A DNA stretch of 31,670 bases from a virus, in the IMG/VR virus record IMGVR_UViG_3300025153_000017, positions 1-31,670 of that record; one strand, written 5' to 3'. Position numbers and translations under genes: made by a program. Positions 985 to 16,209 of the stretch are shown here, in pieces (the stretch's first letter is position 1; every line of letters starts with the position of its first letter). The notes below the pieces were generated by a model, which saw only the letters and a program-made list of their open reading frames with translations, searched no databases and had not been told where the DNA came from.

Positions 985-3900
985 ATGATTATTAAAGAAG
1001 CAATAGACAGGTTAAAAGAGAATATCGTTGAAGTGGTAAGTCACTATGTTGAACTAAAATCACATGGCCGCACTCACGAAGGTTGCTGCCCATTTCACAA
1101 CGAAAAAACAGCATCATTTAAGGTTTCGGAGTCGAAGGGTGTATTCAAGTGTTTCGGTTGTGGTGAGGGTGGTGATGCCATTGCCTTTATTATGAAGCAT
1201 GACCATGTTGAATTCATGGAAGCGCTAAAGATAGGTGCCCGGAAACTAAACCTACAGGTTGATTGGAACGAAGAGAAGAAAGATTTTAATGTAGTTGAAT
1301 ATCAGCATAAGGAATCGCTTCGGATCCTTTGCGGGAAGGTGGCCACCTATTACCAGCAATGTTTACGCGATAGCAAAACAGCATCAGATTATATCGCCAG
1401 CCGCCAATTTAAGATTGATGAAGTTCCGGAGGATGATCTGTTGATGATCGGGTATGCTCCTGCAGGAAATGTATTGCTGAAGTGGGCAAAGGAAAACAAT
1501 ATCAATCTTTCACTTATGAAGGAGGCCGGGCTGATTGACCACAGTACCGAACGCAACCAGGACTATGACTTTTTCAGAGACCGGATCATGTTCCCTATCT
1601 GCGAAAAGACGGGTAAGGTGATCGGGTTTACCGGTCGTGCGATCGTTGATAAAAAAGGAGTGGCCAAGTATATGAATTCGCTCGATACGGAGATATTCTG
1701 CAAAGGGAATGAGTTATATGCGCTGAATGTAGCCAGACAACCAATCAGGGTAGAAAGCCGGTTGTATATGGTTGAAGGGAACTTCGATGTGAAGCGCCTG
1801 CATTCGATTGGAGTATTCAACGTTGTGGCGCCTTGTGGAACAGCGCTCACTGTCGATCAGATCAGGTTACTTAAAAACTACACTAAAAATGTGACGATTA
1901 TCTACGATGGCGACGATGCCGGGCATAAGGCAATCGACAGAAATGGAGATCTGCTTGTTAGAGAGCAATGCAATGTGATGGTGATGGAGATCCCCAAAGG
2001 TGAAGATCCTGATACACTTTTTACTTCACTGGTGAAATTTGACGAATTCAAAGAGAAAAACCAGACCGACTACATCATTTATAAGACTAAAAACGGGATT
2101 GACAAATGCAAAAACCCCGCCTTTAAATCTGAGTTTATGAAGGATGTTGCCTCACTTATTATGCGTTACGATGAGCCAAGCGTTCATGAAGTTTACCTCG
2201 ACTTTGTTTCTGCCATCATCAAGCCAAAGAAAGCATGGCAGGATTATCTGAAGAACATTGCATCCGATAAGGCTCCGGTTGAGAAAAAACGCTACATCCC
2301 TGAAGGAATATCAGCTGCTGACCTTGCTGAACAGGGATTCTACGTTGAAAACAATTGTTATTTCTTCAAGAACAAGGAGGATTTTGTTCAGCGCAGTAAT
2401 TTTTCACTGTCACCAATTTTCCACATCGAGAGCACAATAAATGCCAAGAGGCTATATGAGGTAACCAACAACTCAGGAATGACACGTGTAGTTGAGATTC
2501 CTCAAAAGGATATGATCGGCCTGGCTGCCTTTAAGCTGCATGTTGAGAGTTTACCAAAATGCTGGTTTGATGGCTCTGAGACTGACCTTAATCGTTTGAA
2601 AAGGTGCTTGTTTGAGAAAACAGAATCCTGTAAGGAGATTACACAGCTCGGGTGGCAAAAAGAAGGTTTCTGGGCATGGGGAAACGGTATTTTCAATGAT
2701 GAATTTGTGGGGGTTGATAGTTACGGAATTGTGAAACACAACAAACGGAACTACTATATACCTGCATTTTCGAGCATTTATAACAATGAAGATAATCTGT
2801 ATCAATTTGAACGTAAGTTTATTCACATCGAAGGAAACGTTACACTGAAAGAATATGCAGCCAAATTTGTAAAGGTATTTGGCGACAATGCTAAGATCGC
2901 GCTGTGCTTCTACTTTGCATCGTTATTTCGGGATATCATCGTTGGTGGAACCGGCAATTTTCCAATCCTGAATATGTTTGGTCCAAAAGGTGCCGGTAAA
3001 ACAGCCTGTGCCGAAAGCATTGTGCAGTTTTTTGGAAGGCTGGCCAAGGCTCCAAATGTTCACAATACCAGTAAGGCTGCCCTGGGCGATCATGTTGCAA
3101 GTAGTTGTAATGCCATTGCTCATATCGATGAATACCGCAATGACATCGAGATGGAGAAACGTGAGTTCTTAAAGGGAATGTGGGACGGGACTGGGCGTAC
3201 CAGGATGAATATGGAAAAGGACAAGAAGAAAGAAACCACATCAGTTGATCAGGCAGTTGTACTTACCGGCCAGCAGATGGCCACTGCCGACATAGCGCTT
3301 TTCAGTCGTTTTATATTCCTGTCGTTTACGCAAACGGAATTCAGCGAAGAGGAAATTATTGAATTCGATAAACTAAAAGAGATTGAAAAACGTGGATTGA
3401 CCCATATTACTCACCAGGTGTTAAGGCTTAGGGGAGCATTTAAGGACAATTACCTCACAAAATCAAAGAAGATAACCGAAGATATGCGCGCCCTGATGGG
3501 TAATGAGATCGTTGAGACCAGGATTTTCAATAACTGGATGAAACCAATGGCAGCTTATGCTACGCTGAACGAACATCTTGAATTGCCATGGGATGAGCAC
3601 GAAACGATTAAGCTGGCAGTAAGGCTGATGATTGCTCAGAATAAAGAAACCAAGAAGAATGATGACCTTGGCAATTTCTGGAAAGTGATTCAATATCTGA
3701 TATCATCCAATGTATTATATGAGGATGGTGATTATAAGGTAGTGTATGAAGACAAGATAACACGACGATATTTTGAGAATGGAATCTGGAGGAAAGAAAC
3801 TAAACACCTGGAGGGTGGTGCCTATGAATTGCTATATCTAACCACAAGCAGGGTATTCAGTCTTTATAAAACTCAGTGTCTGCGTGAAGGTGATAAGCCA

Positions 3901-4182
3901 TTGCCTGAATCGACCATCGAGTATTACCTGCGCAATTCAGCAGCTTTCGTTTGCGAGACAAAGAAGGAATCGTTCAAGAAAATAGATCCCAAAACAGGCG
4001 CCCAGGAGAGTGATGATTCCGGAGCAAAGAAACGGACAAGTACTACGGCGCTGATCTTCTATGTCGCAAAGACAGGATTGATGCTTGGAGCAACAGATCC
4101 TGCCGGAGGTGTAATGAAGGATGCCTCCGAAGGTGTAATTAATTTTCCTGGTGATGCGGTTAAAGTTGATTTACCGTTTTGA
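985..4182 (+). CDS. DNA primase-helicase: CHC2 zinc finger, Toprim, P-loop ATPase
   Basis: This 1065-residue protein probably makes RNA primers and unwinds DNA at the phage fork. The N-terminus has a DnaG-type CHC2 zinc finger (C35-x2-H38, C56-x2-C59). The primase catalytic part follows, with Toprim motifs EGNFD (E264) and DGDDAG (D308, D310). The C-terminal half holds a P-loop ATPase: Walker A GPKGAGKT at 666-673, Walker B-like AHIDEY with D715 and E716, a polar sensor-like VVLTGQQ, and an arginine in LFSRF. The ATPase resembles SF3/DUF927-type phage helicases more than the RecA-like DnaB fold of T7 gp4, but I cannot settle the family. DnaG proteins are typically about 600 residues, so the extra length fits the fusion. 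The stop is followed directly by the candidate origin. Confidence 0.9.
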   Translation: MIIKEAIDRLKENIVEVVSHYVELKSHGRTHEGCCPFHNEKTASFKVSESKGVFKCFGCGEGGDAIAFIMKHDHVEFMEALKIGARKLNLQVDWNEEKKDFNVVEYQHKESLRILCGKVATYYQQCLRDSKTASDYIASRQFKIDEVPEDDLLMIGYAPAGNVLLKWAKENNINLSLMKEAGLIDHSTERNQDYDFFRDRIMFPICEKTGKVIGFTGRAIVDKKGVAKYMNSLDTEIFCKGNELYALNVARQPIRVESRLYMVEGNFDVKRLHSIGVFNVVAPCGTALTVDQIRLLKNYTKNVTIIYDGDDAGHKAIDRNGDLLVREQCNVMVMEIPKGEDPDTLFTSLVKFDEFKEKNQTDYIIYKTKNGIDKCKNPAFKSEFMKDVASLIMRYDEPSVHEVYLDFVSAIIKPKKAWQDYLKNIASDKAPVEKKRYIPEGISAADLAEQGFYVENNCYFFKNKEDFVQRSNFSLSPIFHIESTINAKRLYEVTNNSGMTRVVEIPQKDMIGLAAFKLHVESLPKCWFDGSETDLNRLKRCLFEKTESCKEITQLGWQKEGFWAWGNGIFNDEFVGVDSYGIVKHNKRNYYIPAFSSIYNNEDNLYQFERKFIHIEGNVTLKEYAAKFVKVFGDNAKIALCFYFASLFRDIIVGGTGNFPILNMFGPKGAGKTACAESIVQFFGRLAKAPNVHNTSKAALGDHVASSCNAIAHIDEYRNDIEMEKREFLKGMWDGTGRTRMNMEKDKKKETTSVDQAVVLTGQQMATADIALFSRFIFLSFTQTEFSEEEIIEFDKLKEIEKRGLTHITHQVLRLRGAFKDNYLTKSKKITEDMRALMGNEIVETRIFNNWMKPMAAYATLNEHLELPWDEHETIKLAVRLMIAQNKETKKNDDLGNFWKVIQYLISSNVLYEDGDYKVVYEDKITRRYFENGIWRKETKHLEGGAYELLYLTTSRVFSLYKTQCLREGDKPLPESTIEYYLRNSAAFVCETKKESFKKIDPKTGAQESDDSGAKKRTSTTALIFYVAKTGLMLGATDPAGGVMKDASEGVINFPGDAVKVDLPF

Positions 4183-4286
4183 TTTTTTGGTAAACCCCCC
4201 GCACCCCCCGATAGAAAAAACCAGTTAAAAGCAAATTTGAGCAATTGATAAAAACGTATTAATTTTTTAGACATTGTAAACATTTA

Positions 4287-4523
4287 CTTACTTCGCTTAC
4301 TTCGGTACTTTTTTTAATAATAATCTAATACTTAAAATAATGATATATAATAAAATAAATATCAAAAATAGCGAAGTAAGTGCTTACTTTTCGTTTCTTC
4401 GCTTACTTCGCCTTACTTCGATTTTGAAATTTTACAACAAATGATATTTTCTTACTTCGCCGTTTTTCGCCTGTATTAAAATAACAGTCAATTAATTAAC
4501 ATCTGCGAAGTAACAGAAGTAAG
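4287..4523 (+). repeat. Iteron-like array of the 9-mer CTTACTTCG
   Basis: Perfect copies lie at 4287-4295, 4296-4304, 4402-4410, 4412-4420 and 4451-4459 on the + strand and at 4372-4380 on the - strand. One-mismatch copies on the - strand occupy 4506-4514 and 4515-4523, and degenerate copies lie near 4383-4401. Several are tandem with 9-10 bp periodicity, and 4372-4393 forms an inverted pair. Such arrays usually bind a replication initiator or repressor. The array directly follows the primase-helicase gene. Confidence 0.8.
4306..4370. other. Very AT-rich tract between iterons (candidate unwinding element)
   Basis: About 65 bp of almost pure A and T sit between the first iteron pair and the inverted iteron pair. 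An easily melted segment next to iterons is the usual layout of a replication origin. The remainder of 4183-4655 contains only a short C-rich patch at about 4193-4210 and more AT-rich DNA, with no credible gene. Confidence 0.4.
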
Positions 4524-4655
4524 CGAATCCACTAAAATACGTCCTCAGTCCAGAAAAATATTTTTTTTTGCTTAAAACAGGGCAAAAACACCTAAATTGC
4601 GGAAAGAGCTATCAAAATAATCCAATTTTTAATAACGTTAAAATTTTTGCCTGCT

Positions 4656-4880
4656 ATGAAATCCAAAAAATTAACACCTAAAATCAAAACAAATGTTGTC
4701 TATTACCTGAAAAAGAAACATCCCATTTTTATTACTGAAAAAAATGAAAACGAAAAGATAATGATTGATAGGATTGATAATTTTGATATTTTATATGGCC
4801 ACTTTGTCGATGATGCTAACGTTACTTTCTTCATTGCAAAAGAGGATTTTAGTAAAATTTTTCAATTCAAACCATCTTAA
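4656..4880 (+). CDS. Hypothetical 74-aa protein
   Basis: The protein is 74 residues from ATG 4656 (MKSKKLTPKIKT). An in-frame TTG at 4647 is a weaker start. It is lysine-rich at the N-terminus and then alternates hydrophobic and acidic residues in a beta-like pattern, compatible with a small nucleic-acid-associated fold, but no motif is diagnostic. It stands alone between the iteron array and a promoter. Function unknown. Confidence 0.5.
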   Translation: MKSKKLTPKIKTNVVYYLKKKHPIFITEKNENEKIMIDRIDNFDILYGHFVDDANVTFFIAKEDFSKIFQFKPS

Positions 4881-4897
4881 TTTGCAATATTATTTTA

Positions 4898-4927
4898 TTG
4901 TAACTTAAGCAAAAATTTATATCTTCG
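4898..4927 (+). promoter_or_regulatory. Bacteroidota-type promoter
   Basis: TTG at 4898-4900 is followed after 19 bp by TATCTTCG at 4920-4927. This fits the Bacteroidota -33/-7 arrangement (TTTG, 19-21 bp, TAnnTTTG) with one mismatch. It would start transcription about 30 bases before the ATG at 4962. Confidence 0.55.
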
Positions 4928-4946
4928 CATGTTCCCACCACAGCGG

Positions 4947-4970
4947 GGGTTTCATTAACCCATGAAACCC
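4947..4970 (+). promoter_or_regulatory. Leader hairpin enclosing a start codon
   Basis: GGGTTTCAT (4947-4955) and ATGAAACCC (4962-4970) are perfect reverse complements separated by six bases. In RNA this 9-bp stem would bury the ATG at 4962. It may regulate translation, or show that the real start is the in-frame ATG at 4980. Confidence 0.5.
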
Positions 4971-5489
4971 TATACTCCTATGAATACACGTCCTCAAATC
5001 GTCATCACGTTGAATCCATTACTCGAATCGTATTGCCGTTTGGTTTTTGGTACCGATCCTAATGTGAAAGAAATTGCGCTCCGTAAAAACTACGACATTG
5101 CTAAACTAATTCACTCGAACGTGATCAGTTGCGATGCTCCCGATCGTCGGTCTTTTATTTCCAACCCGGTTACGTTTATTTTGCCGGTAGATAAGATCAA
5201 CCATCACGACCTGCAGTTTCACTTCCTGCATGTGAATCCCTGGGGAGAGCAAAAGATCGTTGAAGGTATCGAATATGAATTCAGACGATGGATTACCCAG
5301 CGTTTCGATAAAGGATACGATATGGGCTATTCTCAAAAGATCATTGTAGAAGCAATCGTTCGGGGGCTGAATGTTCGGAATAATGCCGCGAATTTCGATG
5401 CCATCAAGAAAATCGACTACCGTCACAGGCGAAAAACAGAGGAACGACGGTTTAATGAGCTTTTAAAGGAGTGTCAAGAATTTGAATAA
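4962..5489 (+). CDS. Conserved-looking hypothetical phage protein
   Basis: There are 175 residues from ATG 4962, or 169 from the in-frame ATG at 4980 (MNTRPQIVITL), which may be the true start because the first is inside a hairpin stem. The protein is soluble-looking: a beta-type N-terminus (IVITLNPLLESYCRLVFGT), a central region with FILPVDKINHHDLQFHFL, and a basic helical C-terminus (RHRRKTEERRF) that could contact nucleic acid. It has its own promoter at 4898. From memory it resembles unassigned proteins of Bacteroidota phages, but I cannot name a function. Confidence 0.7.
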   Translation: MKPYTPMNTRPQIVITLNPLLESYCRLVFGTDPNVKEIALRKNYDIAKLIHSNVISCDAPDRRSFISNPVTFILPVDKINHHDLQFHFLHVNPWGEQKIVEGIEYEFRRWITQRFDKGYDMGYSQKIIVEAIVRGLNVRNNAANFDAIKKIDYRHRRKTEERRFNELLKECQEFE

Positions 5490-5510
5490 TAAAACTTTAA
5501 CAGGAAGAAA

Positions 5511-5531
5511 AAAAATGATTTAATCATTTTT
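5511..5531. promoter_or_regulatory. Perfect 10-bp dyad, possible operator
   Basis: AAAAATGATT (5511-5520) and AATCATTTTT (5522-5531) are perfect reverse complements around a single base. The one-base centre suits a dimer-binding operator better than an RNA hairpin. It lies in the 91-bp gap between 5489 and 5581. A terminator role is possible but the stem has only two G:C pairs. Confidence 0.35.
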
Positions 5532-5580
5532 GCAGTTTTGATACAATAATTAATTAAACATTCAGTTAAAAATAAGTGCC

Positions 5581-5958
5581 ATGAACTTAGGTGTTGTCGT
5601 GAAAATTGAATATAGGCTGATTGGAACCTTACCTTTCACCGATCTGGATGTGATTCCTTATTCAGGAAGTATCTCCGAAAAATGGAAAAAACCATTTGCA
5701 GGACTGATCGCTACTGTGGCTGTTGACTTCAAAAAAGAAAACTGGTCACCGGCAAACAATACGCTGATGAAATCGCTGTTAAACCGGAAAGCGCAATACC
5801 GTGTAACCGATGCAAATGGTACTATTTCACTTGTTGGAAATGATAAGAATCCGGCACGAATGTTATTTGATGCCCAGGTGGCAGGTGCAGCAGGATCGTT
5901 TAACGGATTCGACTGTGCAATCACCTGGTTATCGCCAACCGGATGTACCAAGTCATAA
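5581..5958 (+). CDS. Hypothetical protein before the head module
   Basis: The protein has 125 residues, is beta-strand-rich and has no cysteine motif or membrane segment. Residues 26-62 carry several aromatic residues, and the C-terminus ends in a GFDCAITWLSPTGC segment. Its composition suits a virion structural protein such as a decoration or tail-tube-like component, but nothing diagnostic is visible. It ends five bases before the first phage-type promoter, so it is outside the head transcript and is probably expressed separately. Confidence 0.6.
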   Translation: MNLGVVVKIEYRLIGTLPFTDLDVIPYSGSISEKWKKPFAGLIATVAVDFKKENWSPANNTLMKSLLNRKAQYRVTDANGTISLVGNDKNPARMLFDAQVAGAAGSFNGFDCAITWLSPTGCTKS

Positions 5959-5963
5959 TCAGG

Positions 5964-5998
5964 GTCCTTTATAAAGATTGATTCCCGTTGTAATGTTG
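5964..5998 (+). promoter_or_regulatory. Phage-type late promoter (GTCCTTTA-N19-TAATGTTG)
   Basis: GTCCTTTA at 5964-5971 is followed after exactly 19 bp by TAATGTTG at 5991-5998, one mismatch from TAnnTTTG. The same arrangement recurs ahead of other late modules. It lies 25 bp before the protease gene at 6024 and would drive the head module. Confidence 0.65.
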
Positions 5999-6023
5999 TA
6001 TTGTACAAAAAAGTACTGCAACG

Positions 6024-7097
6024 ATGCAAAAGAAATATTATTCCGTACAAAACAAAGCTGGTGAATCCGTAGATATCATGATCTACGGCATAATTGGCGA
6101 CAGCTGGTATGAGGAGAGCGTGACGGCACGGCAATTTATTGCTGATCTGAAAGCGCTTGAAAAGGATTATTCCAGGATCAACGTCCGGATCAATTCACCA
6201 GGTGGAAGCGTATTTGATGGTCTCCCGATCTTCAACGCATTAAGATCCTCCACAGCCGAAATTCACACTTACAACGACGGACTATGTGCAAGCATGGCCG
6301 GTTTGGTTTTGTTAGCCGGGAAAACCGTTCACACAGCAGACAATGCTCTACTCATGCTTCACTCTCCGATGAGTGGATGCCAGGGAAACGCTTCCGATAT
6401 TCAGCAGGTGATCGATATGCTTGATAAAGTTCAGGATAGCCTGATTGCCTGCATTACCAGCCGTGGCACCGCAACCGCCGATGATATCAAAGCCAAATAC
6501 TTCGACTATAAAGATCATTGGTTGAATGCTGATGAAGCAAAGGCTGAAGGTTTTATCGACGTTGTTGAAAAAGGCGAAAATAAAGTTTCGAATAAGGTCA
6601 CCAACATGTCGTTAAGCGAAATCATGAATCAGTTCGACACGTTGGTAAAAGGCCGGAGCATGTTTGATAAGTTCTTTAGCCAGGCGCACGATTTTTTCAC
6701 ACCCCAAAATTCTATTGATATGGACATTAAAGTGCTTAGAAAAGCCTGTGGGCTGGCTGATGATGCCAGTGAACAGGAGGTTCTCGACTTCATTGCAAAA
6801 AAGAAGGAAGAGGATACAGATGCAGGTGCAGATGATGCCGGCACTGAAGACGATGCTGCTGCAGACGATGCCGGCACCGATGATGATGACGCAGGAGCTG
6901 ACGATGATCAGGCCGATGCAAAGGACCAAAAGATTGTCGATCTTGAAAAACAGATTGCCATTCTCAAAAAAGCACCTGGTGCTGTTGACAAAAAAGTGAC
7001 AAAAGAAACCGATAGCAATAAAACCGCTCCCGAAAGTTTTGACACTTACGCAAATGCACGTGCAACTTACGATGCAGTTCAAAAATGTGTGAAATAA
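6024..7097 (+). CDS. ClpP-like prohead protease fused to an acidic scaffold-like tail
   Basis: This 357-residue protein probably matures the prohead. Residues 1-180 form a ClpP-type serine protease: NSPGGSVFDG at 57-66, catalytic Ser90 in CASMAG, His113 in MLHSP, and a likely third residue Asp163 in YKDHWL, followed by the typical NADEAKAEGFID. Residues 264-298 are a run of Asp, Ala and Gly, and about 300-318 is a short coiled coil (KIVDLEKQIAILKK). This matches phage capsid proteases with a scaffold at the C-terminus. An internal ATG at residue 233 could give a free scaffold. The gene is followed 17 bp later by the major capsid gene. Confidence 0.85.
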   Translation: MQKKYYSVQNKAGESVDIMIYGIIGDSWYEESVTARQFIADLKALEKDYSRINVRINSPGGSVFDGLPIFNALRSSTAEIHTYNDGLCASMAGLVLLAGKTVHTADNALLMLHSPMSGCQGNASDIQQVIDMLDKVQDSLIACITSRGTATADDIKAKYFDYKDHWLNADEAKAEGFIDVVEKGENKVSNKVTNMSLSEIMNQFDTLVKGRSMFDKFFSQAHDFFTPQNSIDMDIKVLRKACGLADDASEQEVLDFIAKKKEEDTDAGADDAGTEDDAAADDAGTDDDDAGADDDQADAKDQKIVDLEKQIAILKKAPGAVDKKVTKETDSNKTAPESFDTYANARATYDAVQKCVK

Positions 7098-12783: not shown

Positions 12784-12810
12784 AAAAACCCGGTCATTCG
12801 CCGGGTTTTT
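12784..12810. terminator. Bidirectional terminator
   Basis: AAAAACCCGG (12784-12793) pairs perfectly with CCGGGTTTTT (12801-12810) around TCATTCG. A T-run follows on both strands, so it serves the lipoprotein gene on + and the ribbon-helix-helix gene on -, whose stop codon lies in the loop. Confidence 0.85.
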
Positions 12811-12958
12811 CTGTTTCTTGTTTTTCAATGTCTTCCAAATACTTAATAAGTAATGTTTCAATGAAATTTGCCATTGTCCGATTTTCTTTTTTTGCTTGAA
12901 TTTTGGCCTTTTCAAAAACTTCTTTGTCCAATTTTAAGCTTGTAGCTTCTTTTACCAT
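12794..12958 (-). CDS. Ribbon-helix-helix (Arc/CopG-like) regulator
   Basis: This is the only - strand gene recognised. It has 54 residues from ATG at 12958-12956; an upstream in-frame TTG is less likely because it would lie before the expected transcript start. The pattern matches a ribbon-helix-helix protein: a short strand (EATSLKL, 4-10), helix A (DKEVFEKAKIQAKKEN), a turn with R27, and helix B (MANFIETLLIKYL). Such proteins bind operators as dimers, often repressing neighbours or acting as antitoxins. A -7 box lies at 12983-12990, and it diverges from the KilA-N gene. No toxin partner lies on the - strand. Confidence 0.7.
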   Translation of the reverse strand: MVKEATSLKLDKEVFEKAKIQAKKENRTMANFIETLLIKYLEDIEKQETEKPGE

Positions 12959-12982
12959 ATTCTTAGGTATTACTATTTGATG

Positions 12983-12990
12983 CAAATATA
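12983..12990 (-). promoter_or_regulatory. Host-like -7 box for the ribbon-helix-helix gene
   Basis: On the - strand this reads TATATTTG, a perfect TAnnTTTG, 24 bp before the ATG at 12958. The expected -33 TTTG is not evident. Confidence 0.5.
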
Positions 12991-13030
12991 GCAAAAAACA
13001 GCCTTAAAAACACTATTTAGTATATTTCTC

Positions 13031-13119: not shown

Positions 13120-13683
13120 ATGAATATTCAGAAATTTAAGTTTGGTGATGTTGAGATCGAGTTTGATCTCCGTCAAGGGGAAAACATGATGGTAAATGCT
13201 ACCGAAATGGCAAAGGTTTTCGAAAAAGATTTATGGTCATTTACAAAAAGCGATCACGCGAGAGCTTTTATTCAGTCATGTTTAAAACCTCCATATGGAG
13301 GTTTATTAGGTGTAAAATCGGAAGAAGATTTGATTTCTTCCAGCCAAAAATCCGGGACATGGATGCATCAAGTTTTAGCATTAAAATTTGCTGCCTGGTT
13401 AAATTCAGATTTCGAAGTTTGGGTTTATATCACCATAAAAAGTTTATTATATGAATTTGCCCGCGAAATTCAAGACTCAATCAGTGAAACTGTATCGCTG
13501 CAGCGACAAAAAGATGATATAAAGAACCAGCTTGCAAAACGCGAACCTGATTTCTTGGAATATCTCTCAATTGAACAAAAATTAATTAATGCCCGTAGCC
13601 GTCGCAGTAACGCCACAAAGAACAAATTTAGGGAGACAATGGAAGATTTATTTTCACAAAAAGGAAAGGAAGAAAAGCAATGA
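13120..13683 (+). CDS. KilA-N domain protein
   Basis: The 187-residue protein has an N-terminal KilA-N domain (about 1-105): a beta-rich start, MMVNATEMAKVF at 23-34, LWSFTKSDHARAFI, and TWMHQVLALKFAAWLNSDFEVWV near the end of the domain. KilA-N is a DNA-binding fold common in phage regulators and antirepressors. Residues 110-187 form a charged coiled coil (SLQRQKDDIKNQLAKRE), probably for oligomerisation. It has its own -7 box and overlaps the next gene by four bases. A lysogeny or antirepressor role is inferred, not shown. Confidence 0.85.
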   Translation: MNIQKFKFGDVEIEFDLRQGENMMVNATEMAKVFEKDLWSFTKSDHARAFIQSCLKPPYGGLLGVKSEEDLISSSQKSGTWMHQVLALKFAAWLNSDFEVWVYITIKSLLYEFAREIQDSISETVSLQRQKDDIKNQLAKREPDFLEYLSIEQKLINARSRRSNATKNKFRETMEDLFSQKGKEEKQ

Positions 13684-13877
13684 ATACTTGCAAAGAATGT
13701 GTTCACTATAACAATCAGGAAGGCGAACACAAAGGCACATGTATGATAATGGGACTAAAGAGATTAATTTCCAATAATAGTACCATAACTGATTGTTCCG
13801 AGGACGATCTGCAACCTTATTATGCAGAAGTAGGTGAAAACTTTGGATGTATCCACTTTGATAATACATATCGATAA
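13680..13877 (+). CDS. Cys-rich 65-aa protein, possible zinc binder
   Basis: The start overlaps the KilA-N stop (ATGA), so it is co-expressed. It contains Cys4, Cys7, Cys21, Cys39 and Cys57, beginning with CKECVHY, and could hold one zinc ion through CxxC plus two later cysteines. It is otherwise acidic, with no membrane segment. Small proteins of this look are frequent in Bacteroidota phages, but the family is not identified. A hairpin follows its stop. Confidence 0.6.
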   Translation: MNTCKECVHYNNQEGEHKGTCMIMGLKRLISNNSTITDCSEDDLQPYYAEVGENFGCIHFDNTYR

Positions 13878-13885
13878 ATAAAAAA

Positions 13886-13916
13886 CCCCCGGCAGTGCGC
13901 TAACACTAACCGGGGG
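13886..13916. terminator. GC-rich hairpin, probable terminator
   Basis: CCCCCGG (13886-13892) pairs with CCGGGGG (13910-13916), enclosing AGTG/CACT. On the + strand the following bases are CAAGTTTAAATTTT, only a weak T-run, while the - strand has a clear T-run. It ends the KilA-N/Cys-rich operon by position. Confidence 0.6.
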
Positions 13917-13961
13917 CAAGTTTAAATTTTCAGTGAATAAAAATTTTAACACCACAAAAAT

Positions 13962-14219
13962 ATGAAAAATTCAGAATTAAAATGCAACCTCGAAGTTGAA
14001 GGTATTATCCTGACCAAAGAAGCAATCAGGTATCTTAAGGCATTACAGGACAGAAACAATGAAGATATCATAATTGCGCGCGAGATTATTGCCGATGTGG
14101 TTTGCTTCCTTGCAAAAAAGATGGATTACATTGATGATGCAGAAAATGAAGAAATGTCATCGTTGATGAACGGCCTAAGCCATGTTCGTGATGAACTGAA
14201 TAATTTAAGAAAGCCATGA
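13962..14219 (+). CDS. Small helical protein A, paralogue of the next gene
   Basis: The 85-residue, all-helical, acidic protein shares the pattern (V/I)xGxxLTxEAIxxLxxxQ near its N-terminus and the ending LxxLxKP with the next gene product. They are therefore tandem duplicates that diverged strongly. It has no signal peptide or metal site. It overlaps its paralogue by four bases. Function is unknown; a heteromeric pair is possible. Confidence 0.6.
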   Translation: MKNSELKCNLEVEGIILTKEAIRYLKALQDRNNEDIIIAREIIADVVCFLAKKMDYIDDAENEEMSSLMNGLSHVRDELNNLRKP

Positions 14220-14479
14220 GAAAATCACAAAGCGAATCAAAAACAGCCACTATTATCAACGGTGTGGTTCTCACAGATGAGGCAATTGCCTTTTTAGATT
14301 CAATGCAGAACGGTGATAACGATCTCATTAAAGAGACTCGCGATGAAATAAACAATGCTATATCACAATTGATTCTATACACTGAATGGTGCACTGATAA
14401 GCAGATACCCGAAGTCCTCGATACAATTAAATACATAAACGTTTTTAACCGAAGTTTAAAAGAATTAATGAAACCTTAA
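14216..14479 (+). CDS. Small helical protein B, paralogue of the preceding gene
   Basis: The 87-residue protein starts by ATGA overlap. It has INGVVLTDEAIAFLDSMQ aligning with the same region of protein A, and both end in a short LxxLxKP tail. Predicted helical throughout. Identity is low outside the shared motif, so the duplication is old or fast-evolving. No function recognised. Confidence 0.6.
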   Translation: MRKSQSESKTATIINGVVLTDEAIAFLDSMQNGDNDLIKETRDEINNAISQLILYTEWCTDKQIPEVLDTIKYINVFNRSLKELMKP

Positions 14480-14489
14480 ACGTATAACC

Positions 14490-14708
14490 ATGAATACAAT
14501 AGACTTACAAACCGTAAAAGAATTAAAGGCCAGTGAATTGCCAGAATTGCTACAAGCGAAGGTTCGCCGAATCTGTGAACAGGCAAAGATGAACTTTGAC
14601 AATATTCATTTCATCCGTGACAATAAAGAGGAAAACTACATGGATATGTTCGATGGTGATGAATTCACCTATTGGGGATATTTTATTGACACAAACGAAA
14701 TTGATTAA
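14490..14708 (+). CDS. Hypothetical 72-aa acidic protein
   Basis: The protein is 72 residues, starts ten bases after protein B and is followed by a terminator. The N-terminus is helical (TVKELKASELPELLQAKV) and the C-terminus very acidic and aromatic (MDMFDGDEFTYWGYF). Small acidic phage proteins are sometimes DNA mimics or inhibitors, but nothing here proves that. Family unknown. Confidence 0.55.
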   Translation: MNTIDLQTVKELKASELPELLQAKVRRICEQAKMNFDNIHFIRDNKEENYMDMFDGDEFTYWGYFIDTNEID

Positions 14709-14736
14709 TACCTCTATATTTTTGTATGTTTCACGA

Positions 14737-14767
14737 AAACCCGTCTCCCCAAAAGGCGGGTTTCTTT
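14737..14767 (+). terminator. Rho-independent terminator
   Basis: AAACCCG (14737-14743) pairs with CGGGTTT (14757-14763), and the stem can extend inward by two pairs. TTTCTTTG follows. It separates the paralogue operon from the toxin-antitoxin-like pair. Confidence 0.75.
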
Positions 14768-14831
14768 GTACTTTTAATTTGCGAAACAAAAAGGTTAATC
14801 TGCACGTTTATTAATTGATATTTCTTTTACT

Positions 14832-14839
14832 TACATTTG
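14832..14839 (+). promoter_or_regulatory. Host-like -7 box for the Panacea operon
   Basis: TACATTTG is a perfect TAnnTTTG, 36 bp before ATG 14876. A TTTA at 14807-14810, 21 bp upstream, could act as a weak -33. Confidence 0.5.
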
Positions 14840-14875
14840 CAGTGAAAATACACACCGAAAAGAAACAAGACAAAC

Positions 14876-15415
14876 ATGGACAAATTCACCTATAATGAGC
14901 AAAAGGCTGTTGCTGCAGTATTGCTGGTTGTAAACGAGCTTTCCAGCGTCGACAGACACAAAATTGCAAAGATCCTTTTCTTTGCCGATCAAAAACACCT
15001 CGCCAGATATGGCAGAACAATTACTTCCGACTTCTATTGCGCGATGGAAGCCGGTCCGGTTCCTTCAAACATCTACGATTCGATAAAGGTTATTGCACAC
15101 GAACGCAATTTTTATAACCACCATGGTCTTGAAGGTAAAATAGAAGTCCGGGGAAGAGAAATAACCGCGCTTGAAAAACCCGACATTGATCAGTTATCGA
15201 TTTCGGATATGGAATGCCTGGTTGAATCGATCAATGAAAATTCGAAGCTTACCTACGGACAACTCATTGACAAATCGCATGGACCGGCATGGCAGAGCGT
15301 TCCCGACAATCAGTTAATTCCATTTACAGAGATCGCCAAAGAAGTTTCGGCACCTGCTGAAATTCTTGAACTTATAAATTCGAACCTTCAGGCCGAGGAA
15401 CTCTTAAGTTTATGA
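14876..15415 (+). CDS. Panacea (DUF4065/SocA-like) antitoxin-type protein
   Basis: The 179-residue protein shows the hallmarks of the Panacea domain: KILFFADQKHLARYG at 32-46 and AMEAGPVPSNIYD at 56-68, then a long helical C-terminus including KSHGPAW near residue 140. Panacea proteins include the SocA adaptor of Caulobacter and the PanA antitoxins that neutralise unrelated toxins encoded next door. The next gene overlaps by four bases, the standard antitoxin-toxin arrangement. It has its own promoter and a strong terminator after the second gene, so the pair is an autonomous cassette inside the phage. Confidence 0.8.
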   Translation: MDKFTYNEQKAVAAVLLVVNELSSVDRHKIAKILFFADQKHLARYGRTITSDFYCAMEAGPVPSNIYDSIKVIAHERNFYNHHGLEGKIEVRGREITALEKPDIDQLSISDMECLVESINENSKLTYGQLIDKSHGPAWQSVPDNQLIPFTEIAKEVSAPAEILELINSNLQAEELLSL

Positions 15416-15855
15416 GTAGCCTCAGGGACTCCCTTTCTGCCGGAGGTTTAAGAAATTTAATCGCCTCACAAATACAGCCTGGCGCTGTATTTGTAATTTT
15501 AGACCCAATCGCAAAAAAGGAAAAGTTTATTGTGATCTTAGGTATCGATGCCGGTAAGATCTGGGTGGGAACCCTGTTCATCAACAGCGAAAAGAATGTG
15601 AATTTCATCAAGTCGCTGGAACAACATGGTTTGCAGTTTATAATAAAAGCATCCAACTACGAATTCCTTGATTACGATTCCTTTATTAATGCCTCGAATA
15701 TCATCAGGCGTGAGTTTGAAAAGCTGGTTGATATTATAATTGCCAGAGATGGAAGATATTTAACGCACATCATTCCCAATGACTTCGATTACATCAGGCA
15801 AAAATGGCAGATTCGAAAGTCGTTTCAACCGCCGACAAAAAAGACTTTGGATTAA
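15412..15855 (+). CDS. Candidate toxin partner of the Panacea antitoxin
   Basis: The 147-residue protein has no signal peptide or obvious membrane segment. Residues 22-57 are strand-rich (QPGAVFVILDP, EKFIVILGI, KIWVGTLFI), and 82-125 contain FLDYDSFINAS and a further helix. This recalls the small-barrel PemK/MazF-like toxins, whose barrel begins with a PGDxV-like strand, but no catalytic set is certain. Function as a toxin is inferred from the ATGA overlap with the Panacea gene. It could instead be an unrelated regulator or a substrate bound by the Panacea protein. Confidence 0.6.
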   Translation: MSSLRDSLSAGGLRNLIASQIQPGAVFVILDPIAKKEKFIVILGIDAGKIWVGTLFINSEKNVNFIKSLEQHGLQFIIKASNYEFLDYDSFINASNIIRREFEKLVDIIIARDGRYLTHIIPNDFDYIRQKWQIRKSFQPPTKKTLD

Positions 15856-15858
15856 TCT

Positions 15859-15883
15859 AAAACCGCAATACTGCGGTTTTTTT
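15859..15883 (+). terminator. Rho-independent terminator
   Basis: AAAACCGCA (15859-15867) pairs perfectly with TGCGGTTTT (15872-15880) around ATAC, and the T-run continues to 15883. It closes the Panacea operon and the cargo island. Confidence 0.9.
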
Positions 15884-15930
15884 CTTTCTCCCTTTCTCCC
15901 CTTCTCTCCCTCTCACCATCTCCTTTTCAC
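15881..15930 (+). repeat. Pyrimidine-rich low-complexity tract
   Basis: About 50 bases almost purely C and T, built of variants of TTTCTCCC. It separates the terminator from the phage promoter at 15933. No coding potential is seen. It may be a host-type simple repeat. Confidence 0.6.
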
Positions 15931-15932
15931 CT

Positions 15933-15967
15933 GTCCTTTAACCTGCTGTGCGAACGGCCTATCTTGC
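15933..15967 (+). promoter_or_regulatory. Phage-type late promoter (GTCCTTTA-N19-TATCTTGC)
   Basis: GTCCTTTA at 15933-15940 is followed by 19 bp and TATCTTGC at 15960-15967. The start at 15985 lies 17 bp further on. It would restart late transcription for the portal and tail genes after the cargo island. Confidence 0.65.
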
Positions 15968-15984
15968 AATAAAAAAAGAGGGTT

Positions 15985-16209
15985 ATGCTGCATCTTTCAA
16001 AAGCAAGACAATTAATCGAGAGTCACGATCAGCTGGATGTTTCGTTCTGGAAACTAAACGGTGAGATTGTCCACGCACACAACGTGGTCTGTACAAGCTC
16101 TCATTTCAAAGGCAACACATTTAACTTTAAATTCCTTGACTCCGGAGAGTTCCGGAAGGTAAAGGCATTGCTAATATTCAACGTATCAGGCGAGGAGGTT
16201 TTTGTATGA
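15985..16209 (+). CDS. Hypothetical 74-aa protein before the portal
   Basis: The protein has 74 residues and is beta-patterned (VSFWKLNGEIVHAHNVV, FNFKFLDSGEFRKV). It overlaps the portal gene by four bases, so it is likely co-translated. The family is unknown; linkage suggests a virion or assembly role. It is the first gene after the phage promoter at 15933. Confidence 0.6.
   Translation: MLHLSKARQLIESHDQLDVSFWKLNGEIVHAHNVVCTSSHFKGNTFNFKFLDSGEFRKVKALLIFNVSGEEVFV

What the first reader, a model, noticed from the sequence alone, without database searches (positions are those of the whole stretch)
14876..15855. Panacea-type toxin-antitoxin cassette carried by the phage, with an unassigned toxin
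A clear Panacea/DUF4065 protein is followed by a 147-residue partner with ATGA overlap, with a private -7 box and terminator. Panacea antitoxins are known to pair with many unrelated toxins. The partner has only a weak PemK/MazF-like look, so it may be a new toxin type. Carried by a phage, it may act in superinfection defence or lysogen stability.
Basis: partly seen in the sequence, partly recalled or inferred. Interest (0 to 1): 0.72.

Follow-up and report, generated by a model that had tools for sequence, protein, structure and literature searches.

The report
Phage Panacea antitoxin with MazF-fold toxin
This phage carries a two-gene toxin-antitoxin cassette of an already described type, in which a Panacea antitoxin sits in front of a protein folded like the RNA-cutting toxin MazF, and the toxin copy in this phage has lost its normal tail through a shift of reading frame.

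Summary
ORF A (14876-15415) is a SocA_Panacea protein (Pfam E 5e-22). ORF B (15412-15855, 147 aa) overlaps it by ATGA. The pair has its own Bacteroidota-type -7 box and a terminator on each side. The idea of a new toxin type is not supported. An AlphaFold2 model of B (pLDDT 89.5) matches MazF: Foldseek probability 1.00, VIA-align Z up to 10.7, and all 50 listed second-look matches are MazF/Kid. A profile of B's family also finds S. aureus MazF as its best PDB hit, weakly (E 0.007). B's relatives, found by searching with B's family alone, are next to Panacea in 88 of 90 loci; the other two are cut at a contig end. The two proteins diverge together (Mantel r 0.85). Panacea/MazF-like pairs are already described, so this is a new member of a known kind. 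This toxin may be weakened or dead, while the antitoxin shows strong purifying selection. Toxicity, RNA cleavage and superinfection defence remain untested.

The parts
14876..15415 (+). ORF A, 179 aa, Panacea-domain antitoxin (PanA, SocA_Panacea)
   Evidence: Pfam PF13274 E 5.2e-22; NCBIfam SocA_antitoxin 31.7 bits, below its cut-off of 190; dN/dS against the L004 copy 0.0024/0.242
15412..15855 (+). ORF B, 147 aa, MazF/PemK-fold putative toxin (PanT)
   Evidence: AlphaFold2 pLDDT 89.5; Foldseek and VIA matches to MazF; next to Panacea in 88 of 90 relatives
15412..15415 (+). ATGA stop/start overlap of A and B
   Evidence: sequence; the same -4 overlap in many relatives
15793..15855 (+). C-terminal ~20 codons of B, out of frame relative to the L004/L101 copy and the family tail K[KR]x[FY]G[LI]; approximate left edge
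   Evidence: the same state in L002 and L003
14832..14839 (+). TAnnTTTG (TACATTTG) Bacteroidota-type -7 box
   Evidence: sequence; motif enriched upstream of Panacea in relatives, 46/88 against 6.1 expected
14737..14763 (+). intrinsic terminator upstream of the cassette
15859..15880 (+). intrinsic terminator directly after B
14454..16002 (.). block 90.4% identical to phage L004 while the terminase region is about 65% identical: unit of module exchange
   Evidence: blastn

Best explanation
The cassette is a Panacea (PanA) / MazF-fold (PanT) toxin-antitoxin pair. Shown here: the antitoxin family, the predicted MazF fold of the partner, the almost exclusive pairing of the two families, and signals of an independent transcription unit. 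Inferred: A is made first and binds B. Free B cuts cellular RNA and stops translation, using a conserved Lys38 (strand 2) and Ser/Thr59 (end of strand 3) where MazF uses Arg and Thr, and A blocks this. The phage carries it as an exchangeable accessory module between terminase and the next structural genes, where it would help keep the element or interfere with competing phages. In this phage B's last ~20 residues are out of frame, so this copy may be weakened or inactive.
For: A: PF13274 E 5.2e-22. B: AF2 pLDDT 89.5, pTM 0.83; Foldseek best 6kyt MazF-mt1 E 8.4e-5, probability 1.00; VIA Z 10.7, all 50 listed entries MazF/Kid/MoxT; family profile to S. aureus MazF E 0.007; PemK_toxin matches weakly in 11 of 64 members, best E 1.3e-4; PHROG 'MazF-like growth inhibitor' in 5 of 64. 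Pairing: 88 of 90 loci; full-profile search of 198 Bacteroidales genomes gives 9 matches, 8 beside Panacea, one near a contig end. Co-divergence Mantel r 0.85, 0 of 2000 permutations. K38, N58, L86, S90 invariant and residue 59 S/T in 64 of 64. K38 aligns with the MazF catalytic Arg in two alignments. Purifying selection on both genes. Precedent: PanT of P. moraviensis and B. ruminantium, predicted PemK/MazF-like, are toxic, PanA-neutralised and inhibit protein synthesis (PMC8832971); Serratia phage OS31 p23/p24, found here as relative L011, was read as DUF4065 + MazF-like (PMC7556043).
Against: No toxicity or RNA-cleavage data exist for this family member. B itself has no significant Pfam, NCBIfam or PADLOC hit. 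hhalign of the family against single genomic MazF proteins is not significant. The MazF Arg is replaced by an invariant Lys, and the Thr equivalent is ambiguous in sequence alignments. The fused A+B model does not place the two domains confidently (pTM 0.58). The window copy of B is out of frame at its C-terminus.
Confidence: 0.78

Rival explanations
1. The toxin of this phage copy is already broken: the frame shift removes the conserved C-terminal tail, so the locus is a decaying TA or a retained antitoxin. This rival concerns this copy only and can be true together with the best explanation for the family.
For: The tail is out of frame in the window and in L002 and L003. Model confidence of the tail drops to 67-71, against ~96 in the intact L066 protein. 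Other loci also show a broken B beside an open Panacea: L054, L069, L085, L076, L090. A is under stronger constraint than B.
Against: Only the last ~20 of 147 residues change, the MazF-like core is intact, and codons 1-127 of B still show purifying selection against L004 (dN 0.020, dS 0.317). The three contigs are nearly identical phages, so they are not three independent events.
Confidence: 0.4
2. B uses the MazF/CcdB fold as a gyrase poison (CcdB-like) instead of an RNase.
For: CcdB structures also appear in the Foldseek list (E about 0.1); the two toxins share one fold (established knowledge).
Against: MazF ranks far above CcdB by Foldseek and fills all 50 listed second-look entries. The best sequence match is MazF. 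The two described MazF-like PanT toxins inhibit protein synthesis (PMC8832971).
Confidence: 0.08
3. A works as a SocA-type (type VI) proteolytic adaptor that delivers B to ClpXP instead of blocking it by binding.
For: A is in the SocA_Panacea Pfam family and matches the NCBIfam SocA model weakly (31.7 bits).
Against: The SocA score is far below the curated cut-off of 190. Complex formation was validated for five PanAT pairs, including the MazF-like P. moraviensis pair, as in type II systems (PMC8832971). B has the MazF fold.
Confidence: 0.07

Closest known systems
PanA-PanT pairs of Pseudomonas moraviensis and Bifidobacterium ruminantium (Kurata et al. 2022, PMC8832971)
   Same: Panacea antitoxin with a partner that lacks conserved-domain hits but is predicted EndoA/PemK/MazF-like; reported toxic, neutralised by PanA and translation-inhibiting
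   Different: Sequence relation to B not tested here (sequences not available with these tools); B's family is mostly in Bacteroidota; the window copy has an out-of-frame C-terminus
Serratia phage vB_SspS_OS31 p23/p24 (PMC7556043; L011)
   Same: Phage-borne Panacea + MazF-like pair; p24 aligns with B (blastp E 4e-4 in a small set) and p23 with A (36% identity)
   Different: 1-nt overlap, different host phylum, lies downstream of the replication genes; C-terminus extended
MazF/PemK/Kid mRNA interferases (type II)
   Same: Predicted fold, Z up to 10.7; basic residue in strand 2, Ser/Thr at the end of strand 3
   Different: Lys in place of Arg; extra N- and C-terminal elements; partner is Panacea, not MazE/PemI; Pfam PemK model does not hit B and hits only 11 of 64 relatives weakly (best E 1.3e-4)
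SocAB (Caulobacter, type VI)
   Same: Panacea-domain antitoxin
   Different: SocB blocks the replication clamp; B is MazF-like; the SocA equivalog cut-off is not met

Membership tests
Panacea (PanA) antitoxin | SocA_Panacea domain over the curated cut-off | tested here: met
   PF13274 79.3 bits against 25.7, residues 31-140
PanAT toxin-antitoxin pair | conserved two-gene operon with a dedicated partner family | tested here: met
   88 of 90 partner loci have Panacea directly upstream, the other two are cut at the contig start; 8 of 9 in the profile search
PanAT toxin-antitoxin pair | partner is toxic and neutralised by the Panacea protein | not testable with these tools
   needs expression in a laboratory strain
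MazF/PemK family (PF02452) | Pfam PemK_toxin model over its cut-off in the window protein | tested here: not met
   no hit for B; weak hits in 11 of 64 relatives, best E 1.3e-4
MazF/PemK superfamily (fold) | MazF fold | tested here: met
   Foldseek probability 1.00; VIA Z 10.7 over 106 residues, rmsd 3.4, on a predicted model
MazF/PemK mRNA interferase | catalytic Arg (strand 2) and Thr (strand 3) | tested here: inconclusive
   Lys38 invariant at the Arg position; S/T59 in 64 of 64 at the end of strand 3, but sequence alignments do not fix the Thr equivalence
MazF/PemK mRNA interferase | sequence-specific RNA cleavage | not testable with these tools
   needs purified protein
SocA (type VI antitoxin) equivalog | NCBIfam NF047745 over its cut-off | tested here: not met
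   31.7 bits against a cut-off of 190

The most novel reading that the evidence does not exclude
The phage has kept an intact Panacea antitoxin while its toxin lost the C-terminal tail. The cassette may now work as an antidote that neutralises related Panacea-paired toxins of the host or of rival prophages, an anti-defence role and not addiction or defence.
Probability: 0.1. Interest if true: 0.5.

Novelty: new member of a known kind. Interest (0 to 1): 0.3.

Why it matters
It assigns a fold and a likely mode of action to a partner family that the standard protein-family libraries do not name, and shows that this MazF-fold family is tied to Panacea almost without exception across Bacteroidota, and in some cyanobacterial, proteobacterial and other loci. 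The intact copy in one phage and the out-of-frame copy in a close relative make a natural pair for testing what the conserved C-terminal tail does.

Tried and rejected
B alone against Pfam, PHROGs, NCBIfam, PADLOC and PDB sequences gave nothing useful. tblastn of B against phages gave no match; the plasmid search opened the family. hhalign of the family against single genomic MazF proteins was not significant, so the MazF relation rests on the structure model, the PDB profile hit and weak PemK hits. The A+B complex was approached through a neighbour pair that happens to be in one frame (L066, stop read through): both domains fold well (pLDDT 91.3) but pTM is 0.58, so no interface is claimed. 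The possible orphan G042:C35 (L149) has an internal stop and only about 157 nt of upstream sequence held, so it is not a counterexample. Only one sigma-70 promoter-like site appeared, fewer than expected by chance, as expected for a Bacteroidota phage.

Full report
OBSERVATION. A, 14876-15415, is a Panacea-domain protein (PF13274, E 5.2e-22). B, 15412-15855, overlaps it by ATGA. A TACATTTG box lies 44 nt upstream of the A start, and terminator hairpins lie at 14737-14763 and 15859-15880. The TAnnTTTG motif is found within 120 nt upstream of Panacea in 46 of 88 related loci, against about 6 expected from shuffled sequence, so the box is likely functional. The window is an IMG/VR virus record of 31,670 bases. 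It encodes primase, Clp-type head maturation protease, terminase, tape measure, tail fibre and endolysin genes.

FAMILY OF B. Alone, B matches nothing significant in Pfam, NCBIfam or PADLOC, and only a PHROG of unknown function weakly (E 0.039). A tblastn search of plasmids with B alone found five weak matches in Bacteroidales. The three loci examined (L008-L010) have an annotated Panacea gene directly upstream. An alignment of these with the partners of two phage Panacea genes (L011, L012) and the L004 copy was used to scan 84,980 genomes and IMG/VR for the partner only. It returned 78 and 12 loci, including the contigs already known. In 88 of the 90 a Panacea ORF lies directly upstream, mostly within about 25 nt; in the other two (L083, L096) B begins at the contig end. 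A separate full-profile search of 198 Bacteroidales genomes gave nine matches. Eight lie beside Panacea, and the ninth has an internal stop and little upstream sequence. Pairwise distances of A and B proteins correlate (Mantel r 0.85, no permutation of 2000 as high). Of the 30 Bacteroidales Panacea loci examined, 7 have this partner family, so it is one of several partners, as expected of a promiscuous antitoxin.

FOLD AND LIKELY ACTION. AlphaFold2 with 64 relatives gives a confident model of B (pLDDT 89.5, pTM 0.83). Foldseek ranks MazF-mt1, MazF-mt3 and E. coli MazF first (best E 8.4e-5, probability 1.00). VIA-align gives Z up to 10.7 (106 residues aligned, rmsd 3.4), and all 50 listed entries are MazF, Kid or MoxT. 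The family profile's best sequence matches in the PDB are S. aureus MazF (E 0.007), and 11 of 64 members show weak PemK_toxin hits. K38, N58, L86 and S90 are invariant, and residue 59 is Ser or Thr in all 64. K38 aligns with the catalytic Arg of MazF in two alignments and lies in strand 2. S/T59 lies at the end of strand 3, where MazF has its Thr (strand positions of the MazF residues: PMC11130411). Sequence alignment does not fix that second equivalence. RNA cleavage is therefore an inference from fold and from the two described MazF-like PanT toxins, not a result.

THE OUT-OF-FRAME TAIL. The homologue in phage L004/L101 is 86% identical to B and ends ...KKDFGLI, like most of the family (K[KR]x[FY]G[LI]). 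The window copy ends ...KSFQPPTKKTLD, because its reading frame shifts about 20 codons before the end; the DNA of the normal tail is still recognisable in another frame. L002 and L003 share this, but they are the same phage at 99.99-100% identity over 12.4 kb. Separate assemblies thus agree, which argues against an assembly error but does not give independent events. In the intact L066 protein the tail is predicted with confidence about 96; in the window protein it falls to 67-71; the window's tail also disagrees with the other rows of its alignment, which by itself lowers confidence. Against L004, A has 24 synonymous and 1 non-synonymous codon changes, and B (codons 1-127) 19 and 6. Both were selected for function, A more strictly. 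Elsewhere in the family B is broken beside an open Panacea ORF in L054, L069, L085, L076 and L090.

MODULE. The region 14454-16002 is 90% identical between the window and L004, as is 13874-14224, while the terminase region is only 65% identical. The cassette, with the 72-aa gene before it, is exchanged as a unit between otherwise distant phages.

COMPARISON. Panacea antitoxins with many partners are established (PMC8832971, PMC10440598). Two validated partners were predicted PemK/MazF-like and inhibit protein synthesis. The authors of Serratia phage OS31 described its p23/p24 as DUF4065 plus MazF-like (PMC7556043), and that pair appears here as a relative (L011). The finding is a new member of a known kind, with an unusual frame-shifted toxin tail in this copy. 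Whether B belongs to the same sequence family as the two tested MazF-like toxins could not be checked here.

Noticed in passing
L016, L017, L018 (about 2900-6230 in each): An ~8.5 kb region holding a Panacea/B cassette is 99-100% identical in Phocaeicola coprophilus, Leyella stercorea and Parabacteroides gordonii, with direct repeats of about 90-395 bp on either side of the cassette; it looks like a recently spread element.
   Followed up: partly
L054, L069, L085, L076, L090: B genes broken by frame change, internal stop or loss of the N-terminal half, next to an open Panacea ORF.
   Followed up: partly
window 14736-14767 and L004 6449-6480: The terminator before the cassette in the window recurs (94% identical) just after the B gene in L004, possibly a point of recombination between modules.
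   Followed up: no
window 12794-12994, minus strand: A 66-aa ORF with sub-threshold ribbon-helix-helix matches (DUF6364 E 3.5e-5, RHH_5 E 4.4e-4), on the opposite strand to the main phage genes.
   Followed up: partly
window 13120-13683: KilA-N domain protein (E 9e-11) in the same accessory region between terminase and the next structural genes.
   Followed up: no
L004 4532-5047: L004 has a 171-aa ORF that resembles a RadC/JAB-type protein (not tested) where the window has an unrelated 87-aa ORF: neighbouring accessory genes are swapped too.
   Followed up: no
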